Assembly: GCF_000403845.2 (NCBI RefSeq)
Contig: NZ_KE159568.1
Location: forward strand, 745,725 to 809,724
From: Eubacterium sp. 14-2
GTDB taxonomy: Bacteria > Bacillota > Clostridia > Lachnospirales > Lachnospiraceae
Direction: 5' to 3'
Length of the DNA: 64,000 nt
Shown here piece after piece: positions 4,308-54,386 of the stretch. Position numbers and translations under genes: made by a program. The notes beneath the pieces are model-generated. The model was given only the letters and a program-made list of their open reading frames with translations. It was not told the DNA's origin and ran no database searches. How positions within the stretch are numbered: the first letter of the stretch is position 1; every line of letters starts with the position of its first letter.

Positions 4308-4368
4308 ATTTTTATTCTGCTGGAAAATATCTTTCATATTCCAGTATGGCAAGGTCTTTCCTGCAGAA
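4308..4368 (+). repeat. Repeat C variant, first of two identical 61-bp copies
   Basis: Identical over 61 bases to 4492-4552. The ends pair as a hairpin (TTCTGCTGGAAA with TTTCCTGCAGAA). It matches the C family in stem position and in the conserved AAGGTCTTTCCT right arm, but its loop lacks the GTTAGCGTGA core. It lies in the leuA leader, 40 bases before the start codon. Confidence 0.85.
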
Positions 4369-4375
4369 GAACAAA

Positions 4376-4490
4376 TCGGACAGGTCCGCTTCAGCTTCCT
4401 GAATCCCTCACTCATGAGGGACCTGGACGGTTTGCTGCGCGCGAGCGGATTGCGAAGCAATTATCTTCATTTCCGCGAGCTGTGCATCTT
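4376..4490 (+). repeat. Repeat A, full-length copy 1
   Basis: The core CGGACAGGTCCGCTTC ... CCTGAATCCCTCACTCATGAGGGACCTGGACG also occurs at 42485-42537 and, inverted, at 18147-18204. A tail with ATTGCGAAGCAAT and GCGAGC-GTGCAT follows, as at 42603-42645. The core can fold locally (GCGGAC/GTCCGC; CCCTCA/TGAGGG) or long-range (CAGGTCC/GGACCTG). Confidence 0.85.
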
Positions 4491-4491
4491 A

Positions 4492-4552
4492 ATTTTTATT
4501 CTGCTGGAAAATATCTTTCATATTCCAGTATGGCAAGGTCTTTCCTGCAGAA
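4492..4552 (+). repeat. Repeat C variant, second identical 61-bp copy
   Basis: Exact copy of 4308-4368. It flanks repeat A on the other side, so A sits between two direct repeats, and it runs directly into repeat B. Confidence 0.85.
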
Positions 4553-4558
4553 TAAAAA

Positions 4559-4639
4559 AAATCCTGCTTTGCAGGATTCTCCGCCTGCGGCGGGTCGCTT
4601 TAGCGACATACTTCAGATTCGCCGCAGTGCGATAAGAGC
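4559..4639 (+). repeat. Repeat B, copy 1
   Basis: The first 51 bases are identical to 53168-53218. It contains three short hairpins in a row (CCTGC/GCAGG, CCGCC/GGCGG, GTCGC/GCGAC) and a longer pairing CTGCGGCG with CGCCGCAG. Its tail GTGCGATAAGAG followed by T-rich sequence recurs before a C hairpin at 48028-48050. Confidence 0.85.
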
Positions 4640-4706
4640 TTTTTTATCTAACAGGAAAACTCTTTCACACATTAGCGTGACAGAGTTTTCCTGTTAGATA
4701 AAAAAA
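4640..4706 (+). repeat. Repeat C hairpin, leuA locus
   Basis: ATCTAACAGGAAAACTCT pairs perfectly with AGAGTTTTCCTGTTAGAT around a loop holding ATTAGCGTGA. It abuts the T-tract of the T-box terminator (4700-4754). Confidence 0.85.
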
Positions 4707-5005
4707 TCTTCCATATCTATCATTCTCAAACTGAGGACAATAGAGACGAAAGATATAAAATCCTGCGCGGTACCACTCTGGCTTCATGTATTCACATGCA
4801 CTTATCGGCACTTCCATGCCTTTCTCTGTAACGGGAGAACCCGTCCTGACTTACTGTTTCTCTTCTGCCTGATAATTTAAGAGAATATTCAGCCGGAAGC
4901 TCCAGGGCCAGTTCACTGCATCATCCCTGCCATTTTCCACCGCCAATGGCTCTCTGTAAGTTCCTCTGCAGCTACTCTTCCCTTTCTCTGCTTTTCACGG
5001 GTTTT
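4700..5005 (-). promoter_or_regulatory. T-box riboswitch, leucine specificity, controlling leuA
   Basis: The conserved T-box sequence AGAGTGGTACCGCGCAGG lies at 4779-4762 on the minus strand. Stem I lies upstream. By alignment with the trp leader in this window (AAA-TGG-ACC), the specifier here reads GAA-CTG-GCC, giving a leucine CTG codon at 4911-4909. A terminator stem at 4706-4754 (ATCTTTC with GGAAGAT, then seven T) overlaps the antiterminator arm. Uncharged tRNA-Leu is expected to favour read-through into leuA. About 430 bases of repeats separate it from the leuA start. Confidence 0.9.
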
Positions 5006-5167
5006 ATCTTATCACAGATTACCAAAATTGTATAGTGATAATTTTAATCAGTTTTATTGATTTATTTTATTATTCCAAAGAAAAGGACAGATTTTCTGTT
5101 CTGCTGTTAAGGCGGACAGGTTTACGCAGAATAATGTTCCATCTGCCCCTTTCTTTCCAATACTTTT

Positions 5168-5428
5168 TCAGACAACACCTTTCTGATGCAGATATTTCTC
5201 TCTGGTTGCCAGACCGCCGCGAATATGACGTTCTGATTTGTTCACATCCAGCACTTTCCTTGCCTGGGCTGCAAGGGTGGGATTAATCTGCATAAGACGT
5301 TCCGTTACGTCTTTATGTACCGTACTCTTGCTGATTCCAAATTTTTTGGCCGTCTGCCTTACAGTGGCATTTTCCTCAATTATATAATTAGCAATATTAA
5401 TCGCCCGTTCTTCTATGTATCCTTTCAA
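5168..5428 (-). CDS. spoIIID: Stage III sporulation protein D
   Basis: 86 residues from TTG 5428. The TTG is preferred because GAGGGA precedes it by 6 bases, whereas ATG 5446 has no ribosome binding site and would add six residues foreign to the family. The sequence reads YIEERAINIANYII, then the helix-turn-helix ATVRQTAKKFGISKSTVHKDV, then RHIRGGLATREKYL, the classic SpoIIID pattern. SpoIIID is the mother-cell DNA-binding regulator that switches transcription from sigma-E to sigma-K. Its presence implies an endospore former. Confidence 0.96.
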   Translation of the reverse strand: MKGYIEERAINIANYIIEENATVRQTAKKFGISKSTVHKDVTERLMQINPTLAAQARKVLDVNKSERHIRGGLATREKYLHQKGVV

Positions 5429-5457
5429 CGAAATTCCCTCATACACTGTTTTTTTAT

Positions 5458-5487
5458 AATGTATGAGGGAAAAAGGGCGGTTATGAC
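5458..5487 (-). promoter_or_regulatory. Possible sigma-E-type promoter of spoIIID
   Basis: On the minus strand GTCATAA is followed after 14-16 bases by CATACATT, resembling sigma-E -35 and -10 elements, about 30 bases before the TTG start. GTATGAGGG here is also repeated inverted at 5436-5444. Sigma-E control of spoIIID is known in Bacillus; its use here is inferred from motif and gene only. Confidence 0.45.
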
Positions 5488-5532
5488 TGAGGATTTACAA
5501 TTTGTGCTTTCCTGGCGTATCTGTGAAAATAA

Positions 5533-7506
5533 TCATTCTGAAGAAAGCGTAAACTGGCCCACCAGCTCTTTCAGGCTGGCGGCCTCAGCGGAAAGCTGTT
5601 CACTTGCAGCCGCGCCTTCCTCAGCAGTAGCGCTGTTGCTCTGTACAACAACTGAAATCTGATTGATTCCTTCGGAAACCCGCTCAACGGATTCTGACTG
5701 CTCGCCGGAAATTACTGCAATATGATCAATGGCTTCCACCACAGTCTGAATACTGTTCACAACGCCCAGCAGAACATCTGCTGTATTCTGGGCAATTCCC
5801 GTACCAATATGTACTGCGTCCGTGGAGTTTCCAATAAGCTCCGATGTATTTTTCGCTGCCTGTGCAGATTTTCCCGCCAGATTGCGTACCTCCTCTGCAA
5901 CAACAGCAAATCCTTTTCCGGCACTTCCTGCCCTGGCTGCTTCTACAGCCGCATTCAGAGCAAGTATATTTGTCTGGAATGCAATATCGTCAATCGTCTT
6001 CAGAATTTTTTCAATCTCTTCGGAACTGGCCTGAATTTTTTCCATGGCCTCTACCAGAGTCTGCATCTTCTGGTTACACAGAAAAACTTCTTCACCGGTC
6101 TGATGAGTCTGGCTTCTGACATCCAGCGCTCCGTCTGCCGTATCTTTCACTTCTTCGGAAATCACACTGATACGGGCTGCCAGTTCCTGTACGGAACTGG
6201 CCTGTTCCGCAGTGCCCTGGCTAAGAGTCTGGGCGCTTGAAGATAACTGGCTGCTGGCATTCGCCACTTCCTGCGCAGAATGGTTGACCTGACGCATGGC
6301 GCCGCTCAGTTCAAGCCTCATGTTGCGCATGGAAACCAGTATATCCTGAAAACTGCCCACATATACTTCCTCATGCTCCGTATGAACATCCAGATTCTGA
6401 TTTGCCATCTCGTTGAGCAGATAACTGATATCATTGATAACGATACGCAGTCCCTCCACCAGAGACTGGGTGGTTCTCACAAGCACACCTGTTTCATCCT
6501 TGCTGGTAATTTTGGGCATGGGTGTCTCCAGATCTCCTTCCACAAGCAGCTGCATCCGCTTCACACATGCCTTCATGGGTCTGCCGATATTAGTGGCCAG
6601 AATCAAAGCAACGATGACTGAAATCAATATGGAGGCTGCAATCACTGCAATATTGATAACCATTGCATCACGTGTGGATGCCAGATAATTGAGCTGAGGT
6701 GCGGTCACCGCAATACTCCAGCCGTCTGTCCCTGGTACAGGAGCATAGGCTGCAAACATTTTATCTTCTCCGTTTACATAACTTCCAAAACCGTTTTTTC
6801 CCTGACGCATCTCGCTGTGGATTGCTGCCAGTTCCTTAAGCGCAGGATCACTTTTTGCTTCCTCTTCTATATTTTGAACCGTAATTGTGTCAAGGGTGAC
6901 GTCAGCAATCGTACCGCCTGACTTATTAATCATATATGCTCTGCTGTTTTCACCAACCTGAATGGCTGATACAATATCGTTCAAAAAGGTTTCCCGCGGA
7001 ACAAAATATACAACACCTGCAACGGACTTTCCATAATTTCCCTGAGAATACAGAGGCGCCGCTACCATAATGGAAAGTTCTCCTGTAACCTTACTGATCA
7101 GAGGTTCCGATACATAAACATTTCCCTCCATGGCCTGACGTACATATTCCCGGTCTGAATAATCATTTCCGTCAAAAATACTGATACCATCCGCACCGAC
7201 AATATTTCCCCGCTGGAAATCATGCATGGAAACACGTTCATCAATAATAACCTGCTTATCTTCCACCGACACTTCAGAATCGGACAGCTGCGGAATACAT
7301 CCCACTTCCATAACAACGTTCTTATATACTTCCAGTTCCTGCTGTACACGTTCTGCTGCCAGAACTGCTGTCTGGCCCATCATCCGTTCTACTGTGGACA
7401 TGGTATTGTTATAATTCAGCAAAATGCCTGAAGCCCCGGATGCAACCAGTCCGATGATAACCGTCAGAATAAGGCATGTGGTAATTTTGGTTCGAATGCT
7501 TTTCAT
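5533..7506 (-). CDS. Methyl-accepting chemotaxis protein (dCache-HAMP-MCP)
   Basis: 657 residues; start ATG 7506 with AGGAGGGA upstream. An N-terminal membrane segment (about 8-28) is followed by an extracytoplasmic ~240-residue sensor with double-Cache features ([16 protein letters not shown], then [14 protein letters not shown]). A second membrane segment lies near 280-300, then HAMP and a signalling domain with the hairpin tip [22 protein letters not shown]. It should sense a small extracellular ligand and control CheA. The ligand cannot be read from sequence. Monocistronic between spoIIID and a gene-poor stretch. Confidence 0.95.
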
Positions 7507-7770
7507 TTCAATGTTCCCTCCTGCTCACATGGCCGAAATTGTAAGATACCCAGCCAATCCCAAATTATCCACGCAGCCATTACACTGTATAAATGATTCC
7601 GTTTACCTGTTACCGTGCCAACTGCCATATAACTCTCCCCGGAGCAGATGTAAAAATATTGAATGAATCATTCAGGACCAGCATATTCAACCATTTTTAC
7701 TGTTTTTTATAATTATTATAAAAGTTACTGTTACTTTCTGTCAACTACTATCTGCTCTGTAAGCAGGCCG

Positions 7771-8112
7771 GAATATGTTTCTCTCTCAGAAGAGTTTTTC
7801 AACGGAGAAGACTGTGCTGTTGATGTAAAAGTAAAAATGATATACGATGGGAAAGACAATGATATTATCAGCCAGTATGTCACTTTTACAAAGGTATATG
7901 ACGAACAGGTGAAATTATATAGACGAACCAGGGAAGCAGTTACTAATACAATAAATATTTGTAAAGACAGGAATGTTCTGAAAGAATATCCGGGGAGCAG
8001 GGAAAAGGAGGTTGTGGACATGATGATGACATTATTTGACGACGAACAGGTAATGCGTGCTTATGTGTTTACCTGTTTCAGAAACGATAAAAAAGGTGGC
8101 TGGAAAATATAA
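7771..8112 (+). pseudogene. Remnant of an Rpn-family (PD-(D/E)XK) nuclease/transposase-like gene
   Basis: The translated segment reads ISQYVTFTKVYDEQVK, AVTNTINICKDRNVLKEY, REKEVVDMMMTLFDDEQVM, which I recognise as the C-terminal half of Rpn/putative-transposase proteins common in Clostridia. The N-terminal nuclease half is absent and the frame upstream (7663-7770) is not family-like, so the gene looks truncated. It points to past mobile-element activity next to the trp operon. Confidence 0.6.
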
Positions 8113-8409
8113 ACTTGAAGAAAACGATGCAGAATCATGGGTTCGGAAATATTGGAAAAGTTGTCTAAAAAAATGTTGACAATCCAAACCACGCCGGACA
8201 CTCAAAGGGGAGAGGTCTGCATCTTTTCTTCGCCCATAACTCATATCCTCCTTTTTCTTTCTTGCGGTGTAGTCCTGCAGGAACGTGAGCTTGCCGTCTT
8301 TCATCAGTTCGTACAACACAAAACGATCGTCAGGTGTTTTCGGAGCATACCGCACTTTCCAATCTGCCAGCAGATACAAATAATCCGTCAGCCCCCGGAA
8401 GCAGAGCAT
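8032..8409 (-). pseudogene. Unrecognised coding remnant
   Basis: The frame reads protein-like from about 8454 down to 8200 (CIRQFRKDEMLCFRGLTDYL, ADWKVRYAPKTPDDRFVLYE, KDGKLTFLQDYTARKKKE) and then loses character where it overlaps the Rpn remnant on the other strand. The 5' side runs into the trp terminator without a convincing start. I do not recognise the family; the charged helical style would fit a mobile-element gene. Probably a decayed fragment. Confidence 0.35.
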
Positions 8410-8452
8410 TTCGTCCTTCCGGAACTGACGGATACAGGGATGTTTTGGCTTG

Positions 8453-8506
8453 TTACAAAACCGCTGTAACTTCCATCCTGCACAGGGATGAAAATTGCAG
8501 CGGTTT
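8453..8506 (-). terminator. Terminator after trpA
   Basis: AAACCGCTGCAA pairs with TTACAGCGGTTT, with an inner CATCC/GGATG arm. A short TTTTG tract follows on the minus strand, 29 bases after the trpA stop. Confidence 0.65.
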
Positions 8507-8534
8507 CCTATATGCCATAAGATAAATCTCAGTT

Positions 8535-9305
8535 TTATCTCATAGCATCTTTCATGGATTTCACGTACTCTCCTATGTGTTCAGGTGCGTCCTTTCCATA
8601 CTTTTCAAATAACTTTATAATAGCCGAACCAACGATTACACCGTCAGAAATCCCTGCCATTCTCCCTGCTTGCTCCGGTGTAGAAATACCAAATCCAATC
8701 GCACAGGGTACATCAGTATTTTCTCTTACTGCCTTTACAACAGAAGTAAGGTCCGTCTTAATTTCGCTTCTTGTACCCGTTACACCAAGACTGGAAACGA
8801 TATATAAGAAACCTTCAGCTTCCTTTGCAATCATAGCAATGCGGTTTTCAGATGTGGGGGCAATCAGTGACACTAAATCAACACCATACTTGTGACACAG
8901 CGATATAAATTCTTCTTTTTCCTCAAACGGCAGATCGGGCAGGATAAGTCCGTCAATTTCAATATCTCGGCAAGTCGAAATGAATTTTTCTGCACCATAG
9001 GAGAACACCACATTAGCATAGGTCATAAAAACCATCGGCACTTTTACATTACGGCGAAGTTCTTTGACAAAGGCAAATATTTTATCTGTCGTAACACCTC
9101 CGTTCAGCGCCCTGATGTTTGCTCCCTGAATAACAGGACCTTCTGCGGTAGGATCGGAGAATGGGATACCAAGCTCGATGAGGTCTGCACCGTTTTCTAC
9201 GGCGGCACGAATAGCGGCGGCTGTAGTTTCCAGATCAGGATCCCCGCAAGTGATAAAGGCGATGAAAGCCTTTCCGTTTTCAAATGCTTTCCTGATGTTA
9301 CTCAT
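8535..9305 (-). CDS. trpA: Tryptophan synthase alpha chain
   Basis: 256 residues from ATG 9305, behind GGGAGGATATTC; the start overlaps the trpB end by 8 bases. Visible TrpA motifs are [13 protein letters not shown] with the catalytic-Glu region [19 protein letters not shown], then [11 protein letters not shown] and GFGISTPEQ. It cleaves indole-3-glycerol phosphate to indole and passes indole to TrpB. Length is normal. Last gene of the trp operon. Confidence 0.97.
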
Positions 9306-10488
9306 GAATATCCTCCCCTCTGTAGCGGGCAATGGCTGCACAGTCCTTGTCGCCTCTGCCAGATATGGTGACTGCAATGATTTTGTCTTTATCCATTGTC
9401 GGCGCAATCTTCATTGCGTGTGCAACAGCGTGAGCCGATTCGATGGCTGGGATGATACCCTCGGTCTTTGCCAGATATTCAAAAGCGTTTACTGCTTCGT
9501 CATCCGTGACAGGTACATATTCCGCTCTGCCTATATCGTGAAGATGAGCGTGCTCAGGACCAACACCGGGGTAGTCGAGTCCTGCGGAAATGGAGTAAAC
9601 CGGAGCGATCTGACCGTACTCATCCTGACAAAAATACGACTTCATTCCGTGGAAAATACCAATTCTTCCAGTGGCAATGGTTGCAGCTGTTTCAAAGGTG
9701 TCAACACCTCTCCCTGCCGCTTCGCAGCCAATCAGACGTACACATTCATCCTCTATGAAATTGCAGAAGCTGCCAATAGCATTAGACCCGCCGCCTACAC
9801 AGGCGATAACTACATCAGGCAGTCTGCCTTCTTTCTCCTGAATCTGCTCCCTGATCTCTTTAGAAATAACTGCCTGAAAATCACGAACAATGGTCGGGAA
9901 CGGATGCGGGCCCATAACAGAACCGAGACAGTAGTGAGTATCGCTGATACGAGAAGTCCATTCACGCATAGCCTCGGATACGGCATCTTTAAGGGTAGCT
10001 GTGCCTGCTTTGACGGGAATAACCTCAGCACCAAGCAATCTCATGCGATACACGTTAAGTGCCTGACGAATGGTATCTTCTTCGCCCATAAAGACCACGC
10101 ATTCCATTCCCATCAGTGCGGCGGCAGTTGCCGTGGCGACACCATGCTGTCCGGCTCCTGTTTCAGCTATCAATCGAGTTTTGCCCATCTTCTTTGCAAG
10201 AAGCGCCTGACCAAGTACATTGTTGATTTTATGTGCACCGGTGTGGTTTAAGTCTTCACGTTTAAGATAAATTTTCGCACCGCCAAGATCCTTTGTCATC
10301 TTTTCGGCAAAGTACAGCCCTGACGGTCTGCCTGCATATTCATTGAACAGATCAGTAAGTTCTCTGTTAAATTCGGAATCGTTTTTATAGTGATTATACG
10401 CTTCTTCCAGTTCGATGACCGCATTCATCAGCGTTTCGGGAATGTACTGACCGCCATGAACACCGAAGCGTCCGTTTGGATTTGTCAT
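9298..10488 (-). CDS. trpB: Tryptophan synthase beta chain
   Basis: 396 residues, full length. The PLP-lysine motif HTGAHKINN and the glycine-rich phosphate loop VGGGSNAIG are present, as are [12 protein letters not shown] and [11 protein letters not shown]. It condenses indole with serine to give tryptophan. The start overlaps the trpF stop by 4 bases (ATGA coupling). One of the larger TrpB1-type enzymes that pair with TrpA. Confidence 0.98.
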
Positions 10489-16043: not shown

Positions 16044-18107
16044 ATGAAGCAAAAGACAAATGGAACAAATTCCAGAAAAAAAATTGCAGACGAAATACTT
16101 CGTCAGATTGGCGGCAGCGTTATCCTGGTGCTTCTTCTGATAGCAGCTGTGTCCATCTGTATGGTGGGCTGGCTGAGTATTACGTCCAAAAAAACGGAAC
16201 TGACAGAGGAATCCAATGCAGCGGCAAATCAGCTGACCGGATTTCTGAAACAGTATACCAAAAGCGTGGAACAGCTTGCTGTCAACCCTGAAATAAAGCA
16301 TATTATGACAGAAATAAAAGCCGGAGACAACATCCGACAGGCAGAAAAACTGGAAACGGTTCTGGACAATCTCTCACACATTGCAGAAACAGATACGGAA
16401 AATGTTATGGCCGTATGGATTTCTGATCTGGATGCAAGCTCATTTCTCCAGTCTGACGGACTTACAAATGATGGAGAATGGGATATCACAGGACGCGGAT
16501 GGTACAGCTGTATTGAAAACAGACAGACCATTCTCACCGAACCCTATGTGGATTCCACCAACGGAAAAATGGTTTTAAGCGCTGCCGCCCCGGTTTACGA
16601 CGACGCTACCGGAGAAGTTATCGGCGCAGTGGGTATGGATATTGCCATGGATCACATGACAGAAGTTATGAGTCAGTACAAAATCGGCCGAAAAGGCTAT
16701 GTTCTGCTGCTGTCGGAAAATGGTATGTTCCTGTATCATCCCAAAAAGGATGTTATCCAGAAAAATGTAAAAGATATAAACACGTCCCAGAATGTAATAA
16801 ATGCCATGGCCTCTCAAAAAAATGAGTTTCTGAAATACAGGGCAGACGGCGTCACAAAATACGGTTCTCTGCAGCATGCCGGAGATACCGGTTATATTGT
16901 TCTCAGCAGCCTGCCCATGTCAGAATATTATGCCACGCTGATTGCGATGGTTCTTGCCCTGATCGTTATCTTTGCCGCAGGCATTATGCTGATAGCATTC
17001 AGGATCCGGAAAAGTTCCGCCAGTCTGACAAAACCGATTCTGGAACTGAATCATACCGCCCAGCAGCTTGCTGCCGGGGATCTGAACGTGGATCTTCTGA
17101 TTACAAGTGAAGATGAAATCGGTGAACTGGGTGAATCCATTCAGAAAACTGTCAGCAGACTGAAAGAGTACATAGAATACATTGATGAAACAGCAGACGT
17201 ACTGGCTCAGGTAGCCGATGGAAAACTGAGCATCAATCTGAAAAATGACTATGTGGGTGAATTTCAGAAAATCAAGACTGCTTTGCTCAATATCTCCGAT
17301 TCCATGAATCAGGTTATGGCAGGAATCTCAGAAAGCTCAGAACATGTATCTGTGGGAGCCATGGAACTGGCCTCCGCCTCTCAGGTTCTGGCGGAAGGGG
17401 CCGAAGAACAGGCCGCAGCCATTGAGCAGCTCACTGCCACCACTGCCACTGTGGCCGAACAGGTGGAAAACAGCCGCAGAGAGGCTGAAAATTCAGCCAA
17501 AGCAACTTCACAGGTCACTGAAATCATAGCCCGGAACCAGAAACAAATGACACGGATGACAGACGCCATGGAAAAAATCAGAGAGACTTCCCAGCAGGTT
17601 GTGGGCATTATCCAGACCATCGAAGATATTGCTTCTCAGACCAATCTCCTCTCCCTGAACGCCTCTATTGAGGCCGCCCGCGCCGGCGAAGCAGGAAAAG
17701 GATTTGCAGTAGTTGCCGACGAAATCGGCAAACTGGCTCTGGAAAGCTCCGAAGCTGCAAATACCACAAAGGAACTGATTGAAATCTCCATGGAAGAAAT
17801 CAACAGAGGAAATACCATTGCCGGCAGTGTTATGGACTCCCTGAAGGAATCTGTCTCAGCGGTAGCCCAGGTAAATACACTGATACAGCAAACTGCTGAA
17901 AATGCCGCTGTTCAGGCTGAAAACATGGAACAGCTCCGTATGGGCATCGAAGAAATGGCTCAGGGAATTCAGGATAATTCCGCAGCCTCCCAGGAAACCT
18001 CGGCAACTTCAGAAGAACTGGCTTCCCAGGCTGAAATACTGAATAAAATGGTACAGAAATTTGAACTCTGCCAGGAGCAGCCTCAGGAGGTTCCCACAGA
18101 AGCATAA
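16044..18107 (+). CDS. Methyl-accepting chemotaxis protein (dCache-HAMP-MCP)
   Basis: 687 residues; start ATG 16044 behind AGAGG at 7 bases, in preference to the in-frame TTG 16005. First membrane segment about 24-46, extracytoplasmic Cache sensor ([43 protein letters not shown]), second membrane segment about 305-330, HAMP, then a signalling domain with tip [22 protein letters not shown]. One of three MCP-type genes in the window. The only gene on the plus strand in this part. Confidence 0.95.
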
Positions 18108-18112
18108 ATTTC

Positions 18113-18148
18113 AGGACTGCTGCAAAATCTCCTGTTTTGCAGCAGTCC
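18113..18148 (+). other. Strong hairpin after the chemoreceptor gene
   Basis: GGACTGCTGCAAAA pairs perfectly with TTTTGCAGCAGTCC around a 7-base loop. No T-tract follows directly; it runs into inverted repeat A, whose end does carry one. Confidence 0.7.
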
Positions 18149-18204
18149 AGGTCCCTCATGAGTGAAGGATTCAGGGAGTTGAAGCAGACCTGTCCGCTTT
18201 TTTA
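18147..18204 (-). repeat. Repeat A, core copy in inverted orientation
   Basis: The reverse complement matches the core at 4376-4430 and 42485-42537 with few changes (TGAATCCTTCACTCATGAGG). Read on plus, its end GCAGACCTGTCCGC is a near-palindrome followed by TTTTTTATTT and could terminate the upstream chemoreceptor transcript. The tail found in the other two copies is absent. Confidence 0.8.
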
Positions 18205-42268: not shown

Positions 42269-42423
42269 CTTCTGGATAATTTTATCCCTGTATTTATAAT
42301 TTTGTGCACTTTTTTCCATTCTGAAACAGGTAATATATTCCTTCCTTTTTCTGATAAATTTAAGTTAGAAAACAGGAATAATTGTGTAACAATTCGGAAT
42401 TTTCGGTGCGGTAATATTTTTTA

Positions 42424-42477
42424 TTCTATAAGAAGATACTTTCGCGCGTTAGCGTGACAAGATCTTTTCTATAAGAG
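42424..42477 (+). repeat. Repeat C hairpin, first copy at the 42-kb locus
   Basis: TCTATAAGAAGAT pairs with ATCTTTTCTATAAGA; loop contains CGCGTTAGCGTG. Confidence 0.85.
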
Positions 42478-42481
42478 AACA

Positions 42482-42648
42482 AAGCGGACAGGTCCGCTTC
42501 TACTCCCTGAATCCCTCTCTCATGAAGGACCTGGACGGTTTGCTACGCCATTTGCGGTGCGTCAGAGCATACGCAGTATGCTGAACGTATCGCATTTTAG
42601 CACAATTGCGAAGCAATATTTTACCTCTTGTGCGAGCGTGCATATTAT
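42482..42648 (+). repeat. Repeat A, longest copy
   Basis: Core as in 4376-4430, followed by a ~55-base insertion relative to that copy that contains a palindrome AGCATAC-GCA-GTATGCT, then the common tail ATTGCGAAGCAAT and TGCGAGCGTGCAT. Flanked on both sides by C hairpins, as at the leuA locus. Confidence 0.85.
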
Positions 42649-42653
42649 TTTTT

Positions 42654-42707
42654 ATTCTATAGGAAGATACTTCACGCGTTAGCGTGACGAGGTCTTTCCT
42701 ATAGAAT
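42654..42707 (+). repeat. Repeat C hairpin, second copy at the 42-kb locus
   Basis: ATTCTATAGGAAGA pairs with TCTTTCCTATAGAAT; the tip folds as CACGC-GTTA-GCGTG. It abuts the T-tract of the NlpC/P60 terminator. Confidence 0.9.
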
Positions 42708-42740
42708 AAAAAAAGAATCCCGCAAGCGGGATTCTCTTTA
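42706..42740 (-). terminator. Terminator of the NlpC/P60 gene
   Basis: AGAATCCCGC pairs with GCGGGATTCT and is followed by seven T on minus, 17 bases after the stop. Confidence 0.9.
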
Positions 42741-42756: not shown

Positions 42757-43974
42757 TTAGAAAATTCTTCTTACTGCAACAATCGTTCTGTAAGCAGCGG
42801 GAGAAGTATACTTGATACCGGTAGCTTCTGTGCTGGCATGCACAATGGTGTCTCCGCCGATATAAATTCCAACATGACCGCTGTAGCATACAATATCACC
42901 AGGCTGCATTGCATCTGTGCTTACGCCATATCCAACACCTGCCAGTGCACTGGAAGAATGAGGAAGGCTTACGCCAAATGCTGCGTATACACTCATTACA
43001 AATCCGGAACAGTCAGCTCCGTTTGTCAGGCTTGTCCCGCCATAGACATATGGATTGCCTACGAACTGGCATGCATAATCTGCAACTGCCTGTCCACTTC
43101 CGCCGCTTGGCGGATTGTAGCTTCTGCTCTCACCGGAAGATGAGGAGGAAGATCCTGAGGAACTGGAAGAGGAGGAAGATCTTGTTGCTCTTCTTGCTGC
43201 TTCTTCCGCAGCCTTTCTCTCTTCTTCTTCTTTCTTAAGGCGGGCTTCCTCTTCTTCTTTGGACTCAGCTACCACATAGTTGGTACTGCACTCTACGAAT
43301 TCGCTGGATACCCATCCGTCTCCTTCTTCAATTGCCACTTTTACCCAACCGTCTTTTTCTTCCACAACGCTGAGTTTCTCTCCCTGAGGAACCTGTCCCA
43401 GAACATCAGATTCTGTACTGGAGTCTGCCCGTACATTCAGATTATCGGTTGTAACGTCTGCCACTCTGTATCCAACGGATTTTGCCAGCTCTGCATTGCC
43501 CAGAACCAGGAATTCTGCCTTTATGTATCCTTCCACATTACCGGAGTGGATCTTATACCAGTCACCCTCTGTTCCCAGTACGGTACATGCGGAATTGTTA
43601 TATAATTTTCCAAGTACCTCTCCATCTTCTCCTGCAATGGAGCGTACATTTACATAATCATCAACCTGAGCAATGGCAATGTCGTCATATTCCGTCCTGG
43701 TCACAGGCGTCTCATTCTGAACCACATCCACATTCGTGTCGATTGCTTCCTGTCTCGGTGCAAGGGAATTTGCAAAGATCTCTGTAACACCTGCTGTTGC
43801 GGAAGTATCCTTCTTCGTATCCTGTCCGTTATCTATCTGTGTCTCCTGTGCTGCTGAAATCAAATTTCCTGCCCCCGCACTTACTGCAGCATGAGAAACA
43901 AAAGAGCTGCCTGTAAATACAACTGCGGCGGTTAAACAACAGGTCGTTGCTTTTCTGATTGAATTTCTGTTCAT
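42757..43974 (-). CDS. Secreted SH3-domain NlpC/P60 (C40) peptidoglycan hydrolase
   Basis: 405 residues from ATG 43974 behind GGAGGGTATT. Signal peptide (residues about 1-29, cut after SHA), two bacterial SH3 domains (VNVRSIAGEDGEVLGKLY; LNVRADSSTESDVLGQV), an Arg/Glu/Ala coiled stretch, a long Ser-rich linker, then NlpC/P60 with catalytic Cys in NGADCSGFVMSVY and His in GHVGIYIGGDTIVHAS. It cleaves wall peptides outside the cell. Confidence 0.95.
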   Translation of the reverse strand: MNRNSIRKATTCCLTAAVVFTGSSFVSHAAVSAGAGNLISAAQETQIDNGQDTKKDTSATAGVTEIFANSLAPRQEAIDTNVDVVQNETPVTRTEYDDIAIAQVDDYVNVRSIAGEDGEVLGKLYNNSACTVLGTEGDWYKIHSGNVEGYIKAEFLVLGNAELAKSVGYRVADVTTDNLNVRADSSTESDVLGQVPQGEKLSVVEEKDGWVKVAIEEGDGWVSSEFVECSTNYVVAESKEEEEARLKKEEEERKAAEEAARRATRSSSSSSSSGSSSSSSGESRSYNPPSGGSGQAVADYACQFVGNPYVYGGTSLTNGADCSGFVMSVYAAFGVSLPHSSSALAGVGYGVSTDAMQPGDIVCYSGHVGIYIGGDTIVHASTEATGIKYTSPAAYRTIVAVRRIF

Positions 43975-48026: not shown

Positions 48027-48102
48027 AGTGCGATAAGAGTTTTTTTTCTTACAGGAAAATATTTTCATACGTTAGCGTGATCAGATCCTGCCTGTAAGAT
48101 AA
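48027..48102 (+). repeat. Repeat C hairpin with a B-type tail, tRNA-Gln locus
   Basis: AGTGCGATAAGAG then a T-run match the end of repeat B at 4626-4645. Next, CTTACAGGAAAAT pairs imperfectly with TGCCTGTAAG around ACGTTAGCGTGA (48048-48099). It abuts the terminator of the tRNA. Confidence 0.8.
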
Positions 48103-48131
48103 AAAACCCATCACATCTGTGATGGGTTTCA
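48100..48131 (-). terminator. Terminator of tRNA-Gln
   Basis: AAACCCATCACA pairs with TGTGATGGGTTT and runs into TTTTTTAT on minus, 3 bases after the tRNA. Confidence 0.9.
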
Positions 48132-48133: not shown

Positions 48134-48205
48134 CTGGCCCACAAGGATTCGAACCTTGAAATGACGGAGTCAGAGTCCGTTGCCTTACCGTTTGGCGATG
48201 GGCCA
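48134..48205 (-). tRNA. tRNA-Gln (CTG anticodon)
   Basis: 72 nucleotides that fold as a cloverleaf. Acceptor TGGCCCA/TGGGCCA, anticodon arm ACGGA-CTCTGAC-TCCGT giving anticodon CTG, T arm AAGG-TTCGAAT-CCTT. CCA is not encoded. Reads CAG codons. Single tRNA, own terminator. Confidence 0.95.
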
Positions 48206-48261: not shown

Positions 48262-48906
48262 TTAAAAAATTTTTATTTTTCCGTCAATTAATGCAAATTC
48301 CACGGAATCTCCCACCTGAATCCCTGATTTTCCGCTGGTTCCCTCTGTGATTTCCTGCCGGAGAAATTCCAGTTTTTCCAGGGGCACCATAACTTCCGTT
48401 GTAACTTTATCTGTATAACGGGTATCCATGGAGGTAATCTCATTCTGTGCCAGAATATACTGAATCTTTCCAATATCCGTATAATCACTGTCAATGGTAA
48501 GGGGTCTTCCCTGTATTTTTTCAATCACAACACTGTTGCGCAGCCCCTCCTGTACGGCTTTCTGATAGGCCCGCACCAGTCCTCCGGTTCCCAGGAGGGT
48601 TCCGCCGAAATACCTGGTTACCACCACCACCAGATTATGAATCTCTTCTTTAAGAAGCACATCCAGCATGGGGCGTCCTGCGGTTCCGCCCGGTTCTCCG
48701 TCATCGCTGCACCGCTGAAGGTTCTGACTGCTCCCGGCCACAAAAGCATAACAGTTGTGGCGGGCGTCCCAATACTGCTTTTTCATTTTTCCGATAAACG
48801 CAAGGGCTTCTTCTTCTGTGTTAATGGGTTCCAGATTTGCAATGAAACGTGATTTTTTCTCCACAATTTCCCCGGTTCCGCCCTGATATAATATTTTTAC
48901 AGACAT
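48262..48906 (-). CDS. YigZ/IMPACT-family protein
   Basis: 214 residues. KKSRFIANLEPI, DARHNCYAFVAG, SDDGEPGGTAGRPML and VTRYFGGTLLGTGGLVRAY are diagnostic. N-terminal IMPACT domain plus C-terminal DUF1949-like domain. Biochemical role is uncertain; nucleic-acid or translation-related functions are proposed. Confidence 0.95.
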   Translation of the reverse strand: MSVKILYQGGTGEIVEKKSRFIANLEPINTEEEALAFIGKMKKQYWDARHNCYAFVAGSSQNLQRCSDDGEPGGTAGRPMLDVLLKEEIHNLVVVVTRYFGGTLLGTGGLVRAYQKAVQEGLRNSVVIEKIQGRPLTIDSDYTDIGKIQYILAQNEITSMDTRYTDKVTTEVMVPLEKLEFLRQEITEGTSGKSGIQVGDSVEFALIDGKIKIF

Positions 48907-48923
48907 AATCCACCTTTTTCAGG

Positions 48924-48963
48924 AAACCGGGAACAGCGCCCTTAAGCGGCAAATTCCCGGTTT
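48924..48963 (-). terminator. Probable terminator of the alcohol dehydrogenase
   Basis: AAACCGGGAA pairs with TTCCCGGTTT with an inner GCCGC/GCGC arm. T-tract is poor. Confidence 0.5.
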
Positions 48964-48982
48964 GCTTTAAAAAATATAATGT

Positions 48983-50164
48983 TTAGAAATCAACTTCTGT
49001 TCCATAATATGTACAGGTAAACAGTTTTTCCATGGTAGCCGGATCTATTTCTCTTGGATTGGAGCCGGTACATGCATCGCCTACTGCCCGTTCTGCAATG
49101 CCGGAAACTTTTTCTTTAAATTCGTCTTCGTTGATTCCGAATTCTTTCAGAGTCTTCGGAATGTTGAGACATACGTTAAAGCTGTCAATTTTTGCACAGA
49201 GGCTGTTAATCAGAGCTTTCTCAGAAGTTCCTTCCAGTCCCATTCTGCGGGCGATTTCAGCGTAACGTTTTGCTGCCACAGGATCTTTTGCATTGAATTT
49301 AATTACATAAGGCAGATAAATGGCATTTGCACATCCGTGGGGAATATGTCCGGTGGAGAATGCAGCCCCTGTCTTATGAGCCATGGAATGTACGATTCCC
49401 AGAAGAGCATTGGAAAATGCCATGCCAGCCAGACACTGTGCGTAATGCATCTGCTCTCTTGCAGCCATATTGCAGTTATAGGAAGCCGGAAGATAATCCA
49501 GAACCATTTCGATTGCCTGCAGTGCAAGAGGATCTGTAAAGGAGCAGTTCATTGTGGAAACATAAGCCTCAATGGCATGGGTCAGGGCGTCCATACCGGT
49601 GTAAGCAACCTGCTTCGGCGGAAGTCCTGCCACCAGATCCGGATCCACAATTGCAACATCCGGTGTAATGTTAAAGTCAGCCAGCGGATATTTTACGCCT
49701 GTCTGATAATTGGTGATAACAGAAAAAGCTGTAACCTCCGTTGCAGTTCCTGAAGTTGTGGGAATTGCACAGAATTTTGCTTTCTGTCTCAGTTCCGGGA
49801 AGTTAAAGGGGATACACAGATCTTCAAATGTGGTATCCGGATATTCATAAAATGCCCACATTGCCTTGGCTGCATCAATGGGTGAACCCCCGCCCATGGA
49901 AACAATCCAGTCCGGCTCGAAACTGCGCATGGCCTCTGCACCCTTCATTACCGTTTCCACAGAAGGATCCGGCTCTACGCCTTCAAAAAGCTCCACTTCC
50001 ATGCCTGCCTCTTTCAGATAGCCCACTGCCTTGTCCAGAAAGCCCTGACGTTTCATGGAACCTCCGCCCACTACAAGGATTGCTTTCTTTCCTTTCAGGT
50101 TCTTAAGTTCCTCCAGACATCCCGGTCCGTGATAAACATCCCTTGGTAACGTAAATCTTGCCAT
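48983..50164 (-). CDS. Iron-containing alcohol dehydrogenase
   Basis: 393 residues, group III. NAD(P)-binding SMGGGSPIDAAKAMW, metal ligands within GMDALTHAIEAYV, GIVHSMAHKTGAAFSTGHIPHG (His pairs) are intact. Close in style to butanol or 1,3-propanediol-type dehydrogenases. It reduces an aldehyde with NAD(P)H in fermentation; substrate not determinable. Confidence 0.94.
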   Translation of the reverse strand: MARFTLPRDVYHGPGCLEELKNLKGKKAILVVGGGSMKRQGFLDKAVGYLKEAGMEVELFEGVEPDPSVETVMKGAEAMRSFEPDWIVSMGGGSPIDAAKAMWAFYEYPDTTFEDLCIPFNFPELRQKAKFCAIPTTSGTATEVTAFSVITNYQTGVKYPLADFNITPDVAIVDPDLVAGLPPKQVAYTGMDALTHAIEAYVSTMNCSFTDPLALQAIEMVLDYLPASYNCNMAAREQMHYAQCLAGMAFSNALLGIVHSMAHKTGAAFSTGHIPHGCANAIYLPYVIKFNAKDPVAAKRYAEIARRMGLEGTSEKALINSLCAKIDSFNVCLNIPKTLKEFGINEDEFKEKVSGIAERAVGDACTGSNPREIDPATMEKLFTCTYYGTEVDF

Positions 50165-50338
50165 AGTATTCTTCTCCTTTTCTTATTTTTATGCAGCAGT
50201 CCTGTCCCATAGAGACAACCCACTGCGCCTTATTTACATTTTACGATATTTTTGCTTTATTTACCAGTCCTTTTTTGTTATAATACTGTGATAAATCAAT
50301 AACTTATACTATTGACCTGATTTAAGGAGGCTTACTAT

Positions 50339-53065
50339 ATGAACTATGGAAAGAAAGGCGTATCGCGGAAGGAAAAACAGATTACTTCCACTTCAACACT
50401 GGTACGCAAAAAATTTTCAGTCATTTTCTTTAAAACACTGCTTATCTGCTTTCTGGCCGCAGTCGTAGTGGGCGGCTGCGCAGGTATCGGTATTTTCAAA
50501 GGTATTATTGATTCGGCTCCCGACATCTCCGATATTGATCCCACGCCTACCGGCTATCTGTCCGTGGTACTGGACAATCAGGGCAGGCAGACCGCCAAAC
50601 TGGTGGCTTCGGGCTCTAACCGGGTCTATGTCACCCTGGATGAAATTCCCAAAGACTTGCAGCATGCCTTTGTGGCCATTGAGGACGAGCGGTTCTATGA
50701 ACACAACGGCATTGACCTGAAAGGTATTATCCGTGCAGGCTTCAAGGGCATCAGTAATGGATTTCATTTCAACCAGGGGGCCAGCACCATCACCCAGCAG
50801 CTTCTGAAAAACAATGTATTCGAAGGCTGGACCAACCAGTCGGGCATTGAAAAAATTAAACGGAAAATACAGGAGCAGTACCTTGCCATAGAGCTGAGCA
50901 AAATCAAATCCAAAGACTGGGTTCTGGAAAATTATCTGAACACCATCAACCTTGGACAGAATACCCTGGGGGTCCAGTCTGCTTCCCGCCGCTATTTTGG
51001 AAAAGACGTTTCTGAACTGACCCTGTCCGAGGGAGCGGTAATTGCAGGCATCACAAAGAATCCTTCTGCCTATAATCCCGTCAGCCATCCGGAAGAAAAT
51101 AAAAAGCGCCGGAAACAGGTGCTGAAAAACATGCGGGATCAGAACTACATTTCGGACGAGCAGTACGAAGAAGCTCTGAAAGATGACGTTTACTCCCGGA
51201 TTCAGCAGGTAAATATCGAATATGCAGAGGAAAATCCCAATTCCTATTTTGTGGACGCGGTCATTGACCAGGTGGTACAGGACCTGGTGGAAAAGAAAGC
51301 ATACACCGACACTCAGGCTTACAAAGCCATTTACAACAGCGGTCTTACCATTGAATCCACCCAGGACATGGACATTCAGCAGGTATGCGATGAGGAAGTG
51401 AATAATCCGGATAATTACTCCACCGCCGCAAAATACTCCTTTTCCTATCGGCTCACCGTGGAAAAAAGGGACGGCACCATGAAAAATTACAGCGACCAGA
51501 CCATGATTTCCCACTACAACGCTTCTTCTTCGGACTATTCTCTGAATTTTTCCAGTCAGGAGGAAGCCCAGGCCGCCATTGACGCCTACAAAGCTGAAAT
51601 TATGGAACCGGGAGACACCATTCCGGAGGGGGGAGAATCTGTGGTATTCACCCTGCAGCCCCAGGCCGCTGTTACCATTATAGACCAGTATACCGGAGAG
51701 GTAAAAGCCATCGTAGGCGGCCGGGGAGACAAAACCGGAAGCCGTACCCTGAACCGGGCCACCGATACCACCAGACAGCCCGGCTCCACCTTTAAAGTGC
51801 TTGCAGCTTATGCACCGGCCCTGGACACTGCCGGCATGACCCTTGCCACCGTACAGGACGACGCGCCTTTTTCCTATTCCAACGGAACTTCCCTCCGCAA
51901 TTACGATGACAGCTACCGGGGATTCACCACCATCCGTTACGCCATCACCAAATCCATCAATGTGGTGACGGTGAAAACACTGGCCGAAATCTCTCCCCAG
52001 ACCGGATATGACTACCTGAAAAATTTCGGTTTTACCACTCTGAAAGAGGAAGACATTGTGGAATCTCTGGCTCTGGGCGGCATTACCCAGGGTGTAACCA
52101 ATCTGGAACTGGCCGGAGCCTACGCCACCATTGCCGACGGAGGAACTTATATTAAACCCAGATTTTACAACAGGATTCTGGACCACAACGGTAACGTACT
52201 GATTGACAACACCCCGGAAACCCATACGGTATTAAAAGAAAGCACAGCTTATCTGCTGACTTCTGCCATGGAAGACGTGGTCAATGTGGGAACGGGAGGC
52301 GCCGTCAACTTCGGCAATATGCCCATCGCCGGAAAAACAGGAACCACCACCAAAAACCGGGACGCACTCTTTGCAGGTTTTACTCCCTATTATACCTGTA
52401 CCGTGTGGTGCGGCTATGACGACAACAGCCCTCAGGAAGGGGCCCTTACCGCCAATCCCAAAGCGCTCTGGAAAAATATCATGGGACGCATCCACGAAAA
52501 TCTGGAATACCGGGAATTTGCCCGGCCGGAAGGCATTGTAACCGCCGATGTGTGCAAAAAATCCGGAAAACTGGCTGTAGAAGGCCTGTGTGACGCAGAT
52601 CCCAGGGGCAGTATGGTGGAGACAGAGCTTTTTGCCGCCGGAACCGTCCCCAACGAATACTGCGACCATCATGTAAGCGCCACGGTCTGTTCAGCCTCCG
52701 GAATGCTTGCAAACGAATTCTGTCCGGAAGAAAACCGACAGAGCGGTATCTATATCGTAGACGGTTCCCCGGATACGGACGACGGGCCTTACCTGCTGTC
52801 TGATTCTCTCAGCCAGGAAAATTACTGCACGGTCCACACCGCCATCTCTGTCATACCGGAAATACCGGAAGTCAGCCTTCCCACTGACAATAATAAAAAG
52901 CCTGATAAAAATGACAAAAACAAGAACGACAAAGACATGAACGAGACCGATAAGAATGACAAAGAACCGGAGAAACCGAAAGAACCGGAGGAGCCGGAAG
53001 AACCGGAAAATGACACCGGAGAGCCGGAAGAACCGGAAAACGGCACCGGGGAAAACGCACCCTGA
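50339..53065 (+). CDS. Class A penicillin-binding protein (PBP1-type)
   Basis: 908 residues; AAGGAGG 8 bases before ATG 50339. Cytoplasmic tail, one membrane anchor (about 30-52), glycosyltransferase domain (EDERFYEHNGIDLKG, GASTITQQLLKN), and transpeptidase with active Ser in PGSTFK, SIN and KTGTT. The C-terminal ~45 residues are an Asn/Asp/Lys then Pro/Glu repeat tail (PEEPEEPEN). It polymerises and cross-links peptidoglycan outside the membrane. Single gene on the plus strand. Confidence 0.96.
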   Translation: MNYGKKGVSRKEKQITSTSTLVRKKFSVIFFKTLLICFLAAVVVGGCAGIGIFKGIIDSAPDISDIDPTPTGYLSVVLDNQGRQTAKLVASGSNRVYVTLDEIPKDLQHAFVAIEDERFYEHNGIDLKGIIRAGFKGISNGFHFNQGASTITQQLLKNNVFEGWTNQSGIEKIKRKIQEQYLAIELSKIKSKDWVLENYLNTINLGQNTLGVQSASRRYFGKDVSELTLSEGAVIAGITKNPSAYNPVSHPEENKKRRKQVLKNMRDQNYISDEQYEEALKDDVYSRIQQVNIEYAEENPNSYFVDAVIDQVVQDLVEKKAYTDTQAYKAIYNSGLTIESTQDMDIQQVCDEEVNNPDNYSTAAKYSFSYRLTVEKRDGTMKNYSDQTMISHYNASSSDYSLNFSSQEEAQAAIDAYKAEIMEPGDTIPEGGESVVFTLQPQAAVTIIDQYTGEVKAIVGGRGDKTGSRTLNRATDTTRQPGSTFKVLAAYAPALDTAGMTLATVQDDAPFSYSNGTSLRNYDDSYRGFTTIRYAITKSINVVTVKTLAEISPQTGYDYLKNFGFTTLKEEDIVESLALGGITQGVTNLELAGAYATIADGGTYIKPRFYNRILDHNGNVLIDNTPETHTVLKESTAYLLTSAMEDVVNVGTGGAVNFGNMPIAGKTGTTTKNRDALFAGFTPYYTCTVWCGYDDNSPQEGALTANPKALWKNIMGRIHENLEYREFARPEGIVTADVCKKSGKLAVEGLCDADPRGSMVETELFAAGTVPNEYCDHHVSATVCSASGMLANEFCPEENRQSGIYIVDGSPDTDDGPYLLSDSLSQENYCTVHTAISVIPEIPEVSLPTDNNKKPDKNDKNKNDKDMNETDKNDKEPEKPKEPEEPEEPENDTGEPEEPENGTGENAP

Positions 53066-53167
53066 CCCTGACAGATCAGGCAAACACGTACAGTCTGAAA
53101 ATTCTGTACTGTTTCAGAAAGAACAGATTGCGTATTACAGAACAGTTATGATATGATAAGAACAAAG

Positions 53168-53245
53168 AATCCTGCTTTGCAGGATTCTCCGCCTGCGGCG
53201 GGTCGCTTTAGCGACATATTTCTTTTCCGCCGCAGTGTGATAATT
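53168..53245 (+). repeat. Repeat B, copy 2
   Basis: 51 bases identical to 4559-4609, then CCGCCGCAGTGTGATAA as in copy 1. CTGCGGCGG pairs perfectly with CCGCCGCAG here, two bases longer than in copy 1. Confidence 0.85.
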
Positions 53246-53252
53246 GTCTTTT

Positions 53253-53288
53253 ATTCTATAGGAAATCCAGAGGAATTTCCTATAGAAT
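53253..53288 (+). repeat. Repeat C, short form without the GTTAGCGTGA loop
   Basis: ATTCTATAGGAAAT pairs with ATTTCCTATAGAAT around CCAGAGGA-like sequence; stem ends match the C copy at 42654-42707. It runs into a second hairpin AGAATGCGCCCGGCGCATTCT at 53294-53314. Confidence 0.8.
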
Positions 53289-53293
53289 AAAAA

Positions 53294-53340
53294 AGAATGC
53301 GCCCGGCGCATTCTCTGCACGCACGCGAATTGCGAAGCAA
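53294..53340 (+). repeat. Hairpin plus repeat A tail fragment
   Basis: AGAATGCGCC/GGCGCATTCT hairpin followed by GCACGCACGCGAATTGCGAAGCAATTAT, which matches the tail of repeat A (4448-4463). The A core is missing. The DHH gene starts 35 bases later. Confidence 0.7.
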
Positions 53341-53374
53341 TTATTTATCAAATCACAGCGAGGAGGATATTACA

Positions 53375-54313
53375 GTGAGATTAGTTACCCGTTCCGATTT
53401 TGACGGCCTGGTTTGCGGTGCACTGCTTTTAGAGGCAGGTATTATTGATACATGGAAATTTGCACATCCGAAAGATCTGCAGGATGGTCTGGTGGAAATC
53501 AATGAAAATGACTGTCTGGCAAACGTACCTTTTGTGGAAGGATGCGGACTGTGGTTCGACCATCATTCCAGTGAACATGAAAGGCTGGAACTGGAAGGAA
53601 AGTATAAGGGCGAGAGCCGGATCACCCCTTCCTGTGCCCGGATTATTTATGAATACTATGGAGGCAGTGAACGTTTTCCGCAGTTCGGCGAAATGATGGA
53701 AGCCGTAGACAAGGTAGATTCCGGTAATCTGACCATAGATGAGGTGATGAATCCTTCCGGATGGATTCTCATTGGTTTTCTGATGGATCCAAGAACCGGA
53801 CTGGGCAGATGGCGTCAGTTTTCCATTTCCAATTATCAGCTGATGGAAAAACTGATGGAAGCGTGCCGTACCATGTCCACAACGGAAATTCTGGAACTTC
53901 CTGACGTGAAGGAACGAATTGAAGTATACCAGGAACAGACGGAGAAATTTAAAGAGATGGTGAAAAAATACACACGGACAGAAGGAAATGTGATTATTTC
54001 TGATCTGAGAGGTGTAGATCCCATCTATACAGGAAACCGTTTTATGATTTACAGCATGTACCCGGAACAGAATATTTCTGCATGGATTGTCAGCGGCCGG
54101 GGCGGACAGGGCTGTTCTGCCGCTGTAGGTTACAGCATTCTGAACAGAACCTGTGAAGTCAATGTGGGCAGTCTCATGCTGAAATATCACGGCGGCGGGC
54201 ACCGGAAAGTCGGCACATGCCAGTTTCCGGAAGAAACCATGAACACGGAACTGCCGAACATGCTGGAAGAACTCTGCAGGATGGCAAATAAAACAGAACC
54301 GTCCGTTTCCTGA
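53375..54313 (+). CDS. DHH-family phosphoesterase
   Basis: 312 residues from GTG 53375, 6 bases after AGGAGG; the in-frame ATG at 53297 lies inside the repeats. DHH motifs are clear: VTRSDFDGLVCG, WFDHHSSEHE, and a DHHA1-like C-terminus with YHGGGHRKVGTCQF. Family members hydrolyse phosphodiester or polyphosphate bonds (exopolyphosphatase, nanoRNase, c-di-AMP phosphodiesterase). Exact substrate is not evident. Confidence 0.88.
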   Translation: MRLVTRSDFDGLVCGALLLEAGIIDTWKFAHPKDLQDGLVEINENDCLANVPFVEGCGLWFDHHSSEHERLELEGKYKGESRITPSCARIIYEYYGGSERFPQFGEMMEAVDKVDSGNLTIDEVMNPSGWILIGFLMDPRTGLGRWRQFSISNYQLMEKLMEACRTMSTTEILELPDVKERIEVYQEQTEKFKEMVKKYTRTEGNVIISDLRGVDPIYTGNRFMIYSMYPEQNISAWIVSGRGGQGCSAAVGYSILNRTCEVNVGSLMLKYHGGGHRKVGTCQFPEETMNTELPNMLEELCRMANKTEPSVS

Positions 54314-54340
54314 GTATGCTGTCTGAATCTGTTTCAAAAA

Positions 54341-54386
54341 TTAACAGGAAAGCCTTTCGCGTGACAGGGTCTTTCCTGTAAGATAA
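54341..54386 (+). repeat. Repeat C hairpin, pseudo-receiver locus
   Basis: TTAACAGGAAAG with CTTTCCTGTAA; shortened loop with CGCGTGAC. Abuts the terminator of the next gene. Confidence 0.75.

What the first reader, a model, noticed from the sequence alone, without database searches (positions are those of the whole stretch)
4308..54386. Mosaic family of structured intergenic repeats at six loci
Three elements, A, B and C, recur between genes: 4308-4706 (C' A C' B C), 18113-18204 (A inverted), 42424-42707 (C A C), 48027-48102 (B tail, C), 53168-53340 (B, C short, A tail) and 54341-54386 (C). They combine in different orders, keep base-pairing and stay out of coding sequence. No transposase is attached. 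This resembles REP/MITE-like or structured-RNA families, but I know of no description of this one.
Basis: seen in the sequence. Interest (0 to 1): 0.8.

Follow-up and report, generated by a model that had tools for sequence, protein, structure and literature searches.

The report
Mobile hairpin repeats behind transcription terminators
A gut bacterium carries about a hundred copies of a mosaic family of hairpin-rich DNA repeats that sit, nearly always in the same direction, right behind the stop signals for transcription, and they appear to have spread recently by an unknown route.

Summary
The six loci are real; hairpin C has at least 93 places in the 3.99 Mb genome. Parts follow a grammar: hairpin C, a structured body, then a terminator-like hairpin with a T tail, singly or in head-to-tail chains.

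Units lie behind intrinsic terminators in the gene's direction: 82 of 90 first-in-chain C copies follow a hairpin (dG <= -7) against 73 of 270 shuffled flanks, with six T at fixed spacing. None lies wholly inside a called gene.

They look mobile: 84 pairs of clusters share >=95% identity over >=80 nt, none with similar flanks; orthologous sites in relatives are empty or hold other modules. The foot of C fits its own site even between near-identical bodies (97 of 121 pairs), which suggests copying by template switching.

Neither a Y1/RAYT transposase nor a reverse transcriptase was found in this genome, and neither tracks copy number in the genus. The mobiliser is unknown. A new BOX/REP-like family with terminator docking.

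The parts
4739..4997 (-). T-box leader of leuA; its terminator, next to 4708, is the docking site of the first chain
   Evidence: Rfam RF00230, 117.7 bits
4638..4708 (-). hairpin C, first of the chain, near-perfect palindrome
   Evidence: R1 78.0 bits; palindrome C2:750364-750429
4556..4640 (-). body B, ending in a terminator-like hairpin 4556-4582
   Evidence: module map; terminator scan
4490..4562 (-). hairpin C, second
   Evidence: R1 67.0 bits
4374..4494 (-). body M4 plus end module P
   Evidence: module map
4306..4378 (-). hairpin C, third
   Evidence: R1 62.3 bits
18142..18202 (+). fragment of end module P, without C, 35 nt behind the plus-strand gene 16044-18107
   Evidence: module map, C2:763866-763926
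42646..42716 (-). hairpin C, behind the terminator of gene 42757-43974
   Evidence: R1 87.8 bits
42483..42648 (-). body M2-M5 plus end module P
   Evidence: module map
42415..42486 (-). hairpin C behind P
   Evidence: R1 76.6 bits
48038..48109 (-). solo hairpin C behind the terminator of the tRNA at 48134-48205
   Evidence: R1 67.4 bits; tRNA
53298..53345 (-). remnant of an M4-like unit end with hairpin and T tail; stands upstream of the next unit
   Evidence: read by eye; repeat D17
53245..53297 (-). short hairpin c
   Evidence: R1 45.1 bits
53162..53252 (-). body B with end hairpin and TTTGTTC
   Evidence: module map; 100% over 126 nt to C2:584028
54341..54389 (-). truncated hairpin C behind the hairpin 54390-54413 next to gene 54417-55490
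   Evidence: no R1 match listed at E<=0.01

Best explanation
A non-autonomous mobile repeat family that docks on intrinsic terminators. A unit enters directly behind a terminator stem and its six-T tract, in the direction of transcription. It consists of hairpin C, a body of interchangeable GC-rich hairpins, and a terminator-like end hairpin with a T tail. Because its own end looks like a terminator it can be the next docking site, so chains grow while the host terminator stays intact. Shown: position, orientation, unit grammar, near-identical copies at unrelated sites, presence/absence in relatives, fit of C to its site. Inferred: the outer right arm of C is an inverted copy of the site's own T tract, made at or soon after insertion by template switching on the hairpin; a trans-acting enzyme, not identified, moves the units; the units are mild parasites in a safe place rather than useful RNAs.
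For: 82 of 90 first C copies follow a hairpin against 73 of 270 shuffled flanks; six T at fixed spacing; upstream gene on the same strand in 95, opposite in 14, none called in 2 of 111 clusters; 84 near-identical pairs with unlike flanks; empty or differently filled orthologous sites at all four sites compared; 97 of 121 near-identical body pairs with different N both matched; N:N' Watson-Crick 57 of 85 against 27.2 expected; copies turned into near-perfect palindromes; copy number from 0 to more than 100 within one genus.
Against: No pair of near-identical strains, so no exact empty/filled junction and no insertion event seen. No mobiliser found. 8 of 90 first C copies have no such hairpin; random T5 tracts in the same segments have one in 69 of 300. 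Window 53162-53297 has both flanking genes on the opposite strand. The 121 pairs share copies and are not independent, and copies with poor core pairing were dropped first. The 7-nt foot is an exact copy in only 8 of 22 c and 11 of 51 first C, and a shuffle reached 8 for c.
Confidence: 0.6

Rival explanations
1. Functional structured RNAs or extended terminators kept by selection: C pairs with the U tract of read-through RNA and tunes termination or decay, and the arm covariation reflects selection.
For: Covariation in C and body; C kept behind the same tRNA terminator in several species with different arms.
Against: Arms change in concert between copies whose bodies are >=93% identical; copies are near-identical at unrelated loci and missing at orthologous ones.
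Confidence: 0.15
2. REP-like elements moved by an IS200/IS605-type Y1 (RAYT) transposase, now lost here.
For: Palindromic, intergenic, high-copy, fixed orientation; Y1 genes exist in 17 of 29 genus genomes over the cut-off.
Against: No PF01797 match in G000; none in C-rich G002, G009, G012, G018, G022, but present in G011 and G015, which have no C match.
Confidence: 0.08
3. Retro-insertion by group IIC-like machinery, which targets terminator stem-loops.
For: Same target: the assay substrate of PMC7161350 is a terminator stem-loop followed by a T-rich stretch (passages); fixed orientation and spacing.
Against: No RVT_1 match in G000; none in G002, G005, G010, G017, which have C; no group II RNA reported by Rfam in the stretches scanned.
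Confidence: 0.07
4. Bodies hop by recombination onto resident C hairpins whose arms have long co-evolved at each site.
For: Explains matched arms without templating; solo C copies are common in the map.
Against: The short c loop goes with arm type and body in the listing, so c travels with its body while the foot follows the site.
Confidence: 0.1

Closest known systems
BOX elements of Streptococcus pneumoniae (PMC3049150, passages read)
   Same: Composite, modular, structured, intergenic, non-autonomous; modules present or absent in different copies.
   Different: Here the unit starts with a hairpin that fits the T tract of a terminator, has a fixed orientation to it, and forms chains; no sequence relation was tested.
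REP/BIME and REPINs (PMC3733652 passages; PMC2817692, PMC3116915, PMC8266576 search listing and abstract start)
   Same: Palindromic, high-copy, mosaic, mostly downstream of genes.
   Different: No Y1/RAYT transposase in this genome; units of about 125-300 nt with a terminator-like end; outer arms fit the site.
Group IIC introns (PMC7161350 passages; Robart 2007 seen only as a reference there)
   Same: Insertion behind terminator stem-loops in the sense direction.
   Different: No reverse transcriptase in this genome and no group II RNA found by Rfam.
SPRITE repeats of pneumococcus (PMC3049150, passages)
   Same: Terminator-like repeat.
   Different: SPRITE is a single long terminator-like hairpin; here the repeat stands behind a host terminator and ends in its own.

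Membership tests
REP/BIME (RAYT-linked) | Y1 (RAYT) transposase in the genome | tested here: not met
   PF01797: 0 matches in G000; no tracking across 29 genus genomes
REP/BIME (RAYT-linked) | 20-40 bp palindromes in high copy between genes | tested here: inconclusive
   High copy and palindromic, but C is about 70 nt and part of a longer unit
MITE (DDE type) | target site duplication | tested here: inconclusive
   Compared by eye on some units: left T6N and right T tail differ (e.g. TTTTTTA left, TTTGTTC right at window 53162-53297); no systematic test
MITE (DDE type) | terminal inverted repeats with a constant sequence at both ends of the unit | tested here: not met
   C lies at one end only and its arms vary between copies
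BOX-like modular repeat | composite of separable modules present in different combinations | tested here: met
   111 clusters with C, c, P, B, M1-M5
BOX-like modular repeat | sequence homology to pneumococcal BOX | not tested
   No comparison made
Group IIC intron | insertion behind terminator stem-loop in sense orientation | tested here: met
Group IIC intron | group II RNA (domain V) and reverse transcriptase | tested here: not met
   Rfam (window and six loci); PF00078 0 matches in G000
Rfam RNA family | match to a curated covariance model at its gathering score | tested here: not met
   Window: only T-box x2 and a tRNA; six loci at E<=1: besides these only microRNA models far below their gathering scores

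The most novel reading that the evidence does not exclude
A new class of mobile element that recognises intrinsic terminators as hairpins and, on insertion, rebuilds its first hairpin by copying the host's own T tract in inverted form, so that every copy is fitted to its site; its end mimics a terminator and becomes the next target. The machinery would be neither a Y1 transposase nor a group II reverse transcriptase.
Probability: 0.25. Interest if true: 0.85.

Novelty: new variant of a known kind. Interest (0 to 1): 0.62.

Why it matters
Terminators would be a safe place for a high-copy mobile repeat in gut Lachnospiraceae, with a target rule that I know otherwise from group IIC introns. The site-fitted arms are a natural experiment to tell template-switch copying from compensatory selection, which bears on how far covariation proves RNA function. 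In one case (leuA, window 4306-4708) units put an extra terminator between a T-box and its gene. The unknown mobiliser is a concrete target for strain comparison.

Tried and rejected
Y1/RAYT and RVT_1 as resident mobilisers: no match here, no tracking in the genus; other transposase families were not searched. Rfam at E<=1 on six loci: besides T-box and tRNA only microRNA models below their gathering scores. A rigid stem rule found terminators at 64 of 111 cluster edges (controls 6 of 111 at the far edge and 66 of 2000 random places); a fold test anchored on the T run 67 of 97 at dG<=-8 (control T5 tracts 69 of 300); a fold test anchored on GGAAA 82 of 90 at dG<=-7 (shuffled flanks 73 of 270). 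I rely on the last because several misses of the first two showed a stem by eye. Dropped rows: six C copies without an anchor before the 90 + 35; copies with fewer than 7 of 9 core pairs (118 of 125 kept) and fewer than 8 of 9 (90 kept). The core-arm figures (128 of 137 pairs) are biased by that filter and not used as proof; N lies outside it. Target duplication of the T6N tract: not seen by eye on some units, not tested systematically. Unrelated inherited terminators: excluded. The output was cut, so I did not see the flanks of every cluster there. A joined-flank query was built and printed but not searched. Paper searches for a prior description listed none that by title or abstract start describes this family; only open-licence PubMed Central papers are covered.

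Full report
What was checked. The six loci were read in full and the repeats recovered by a repeat finder. Searches of the whole genome G000 (3,992,445 bases, 4 contigs, 99.93% complete; the window is C2:745725-809724) gave 66 matches with window 42424-42712 and 58 with 4550-4706 at E<=0.01. A covariance model R1 of hairpin C was built from 43 copies; it gives 139 matches in G000, which I merged across strands to 93 places. Only 150 of 3226 first-look candidates were scored, so this is a lower bound.

Unit grammar. A module map by nhmmer over 91 own-genome segments (456,575 bases, chosen around hits, so not a random sample) gives 111 clusters with 113 C, 23 short c, 43 P, 32 B, 24 M1, 18 M2, 9 M3, 21 M4 and 16 M5. 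Module names are mine. In sense orientation the order is C or c, then body, then an end hairpin with a T tail (P and many B: hairpin + TTTGTTC; M4 and some B: hairpin + TTTTTTA). Chains such as c-B-C-M1-P run head to tail. Nine loci from eight genomes outside the genus, picked from the better matches, show by eye the same start: terminator, T tract, C; eight of the nine have a longer body, G183 a short one.

Docking on terminators. In 95 of 111 clusters the upstream gene lies on the same strand, in 14 on the opposite strand, in 2 none was called; the median distance from the stop is 66 nt for the 95. My gene calls leave out RNA genes: by eye at least C2:1218584 and C1:615622 among the 14 follow a tRNA. 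Window 53162-53297 is among the 14; it stands behind the end hairpin of another unit remnant. No cluster lies wholly inside a called gene; a few edges overlap a gene end, by 34 nt at most. For 90 first-in-chain C copies the sequence upstream of GGAAA is a stem, six positions that are T in 80-93% of copies, a variable base N, then TYYTAY. A hairpin with dG<=-7 ends 12-18 nt upstream of GGAAA in 82 of 90, against 73 of 270 shuffled flanks. A harder control, random T5 tracts in the same segments, has a hairpin at dG<=-8 in 69 of 300, against 67 of 97 C clusters by that method. Docking sites include protein genes, a tRNA (48134-48205) and a T-box leader (4739-4997).

Mobility. Among the 111 clusters, 84 pairs are >=95% identical over >=80 nt, involving 46 clusters, and none of these pairs has similar flanks; the c-B unit at window 53162-53287 is 100% identical over 126 nt to one at C2:584028. 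Relatives match the window at about 65-91% in blocks. Behind the tRNA terminator (48042-48105) R1 finds C in G002, G003, G013 and G014 of 13 relatives read, one of them (G009) cut at a contig end; G005 has a variant by eye. Behind gene 42757 it finds C in G002, G004, G007 and G009 of 13 relatives; remnants are seen by eye in others such as G014, G003 and G012. Behind the leuA T-box, of 12 relatives, G024 has C-B-C, G009 a decayed C, G004 and G001 C-like palindromes by eye, and G002, G003, G010, G012, G013, G014, G015 and G022 none. At 18142-18202 G014 carries B-C-M3-M2-P, and G015 and G024 carry nothing. Flanks are too diverged to give exact junctions.

Distribution. R1 matches at E<=0.01 occur in the own genome and in 22 of 24 other genomes of the genus, from 2 to 120 matches, none in G011 and G015, and in 0 of 16 genomes of other families (at most 121 candidates scored per genome). 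In a family-wide draw 38 of 397 genomes have a match at E<=0.001, two of them of this genus; 20 of the other 36 have a single match (12 candidates scored per genome). No call names the species of the window.

Structure and its meaning. C: 14 of 26 pairs with changes on both sides (shuffle mean 7.6), 90.7% of cells paired against 46-59% in slid controls. Body (A2: 13 copies of G000, 3 of genus relatives, 3 from outside): 12 of 26 predicted pairs have both-sided changes. The arms, however, change faster than the body. In first-in-chain C (n=85) N and its partner form a Watson-Crick pair in 57 against 27.2 expected from independence; in internal C (n=33) 16 against 10.8. Among pairs of copies with bodies >=93% identical and different N, both are matched in 97 of 121; these pairs share copies and are not independent. 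By eye the 22 c copies listed are all matched at N. The full 7-nt foot is an exact inverted copy in 8 of 22 c (shuffle mean 2.6, maximum 8), 11 of 51 first C (3.2, maximum 8) and 1 of 17 internal C (0.8, maximum 2). c-M4 units with near-identical bodies show TTTTTTA/TAAAAAA, TTTGTTC/GAACAAA, TTTTTCA/TGAAAAA and TTTTTTC/GAAAAAA, but c-B units behind TTTGTTC do not copy the G. Some C copies have become near-perfect palindromes (C1:1000692, C1:1165231, C2:750364) and some P have collapsed to perfect hairpins (C2:184049, C2:1045244). At the leuA site G004 has a 22-pair palindrome with arms unlike those of the other species. Template switching is known to make and mend hairpins (PMC8794818, passages). 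I infer that the fit is copied from the site; choice of matching sites by pairing, or bodies moving between resident C, are not excluded.

Mobiliser. Y1_Tnp (PF01797) and RVT_1 (PF00078) have no match in G000. Across 29 genus genomes they do not follow C: Y1 is absent in C-rich G000, G002, G009, G012, G018 and G022 and present in G011 and G015; RVT_1 is absent in G000, G002, G005, G010 and G017 and present in G011 and G015. A lost or unrelated enzyme remains possible.

Comparison. It is built like BOX elements in being modular and non-autonomous (PMC3049150, passages), shares its target with group IIC introns (PMC7161350, passages), and is palindromic and downstream of genes like REP (PMC3733652, passages). 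It fails a tested defining feature of REP in the RAYT sense and of group IIC introns, and its ends do not fit a classical MITE. PMC8040213 (passages) reports palindromic candidate RNAs with terminators in human microbiomes; the word Lachnospiraceae does not occur in its main text, and its supplements were not read. I count this as a new family and a new variant of a known kind, because docking on terminators and the site-fitted hairpin are, as far as my searches reach, not described together.

Noticed in passing
window 4306-4997: The leader of leuA carries T-box, then units with their own terminator-like hairpin (4556-4582, minus strand) before the gene, which should weaken or replace T-box control.
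   Followed up: partly
window 2268-4268, minus strand: The LeuA protein carries a C-terminal AraC-type helix-turn-helix domain besides the isopropylmalate synthase domains.
   Followed up: no
window 53375-54313: A plus-strand gene without a Pfam match, flanked by two of the repeat loci; in relatives its best matches lie on other contigs or places than its window neighbours.
   Followed up: no
own genome C1:148701-148752; L088; L173: A second, different inverted-repeat element (ends near GGTGTCAAAAGGGTGCG) sits beside or inside C hairpins in this genome and in relatives.
   Followed up: no
own genome C1:135974-136025 and C1:1726825-1726887: Two long near-perfect inverted repeats outside the mapped clusters; the second contains a hairpin like the end of M4 units.
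   Followed up: no
L165 (G010) and L166 (G013): The leuA leader region reads the same in two species, which suggests a misplaced contig in the draft genome G010.
   Followed up: no
L087 and L093 (G002, G012): Behind the repeat site next to gene 42757 a short open frame follows that by eye resembles an alkyltransferase-like protein (recalled, not tested).
   Followed up: no
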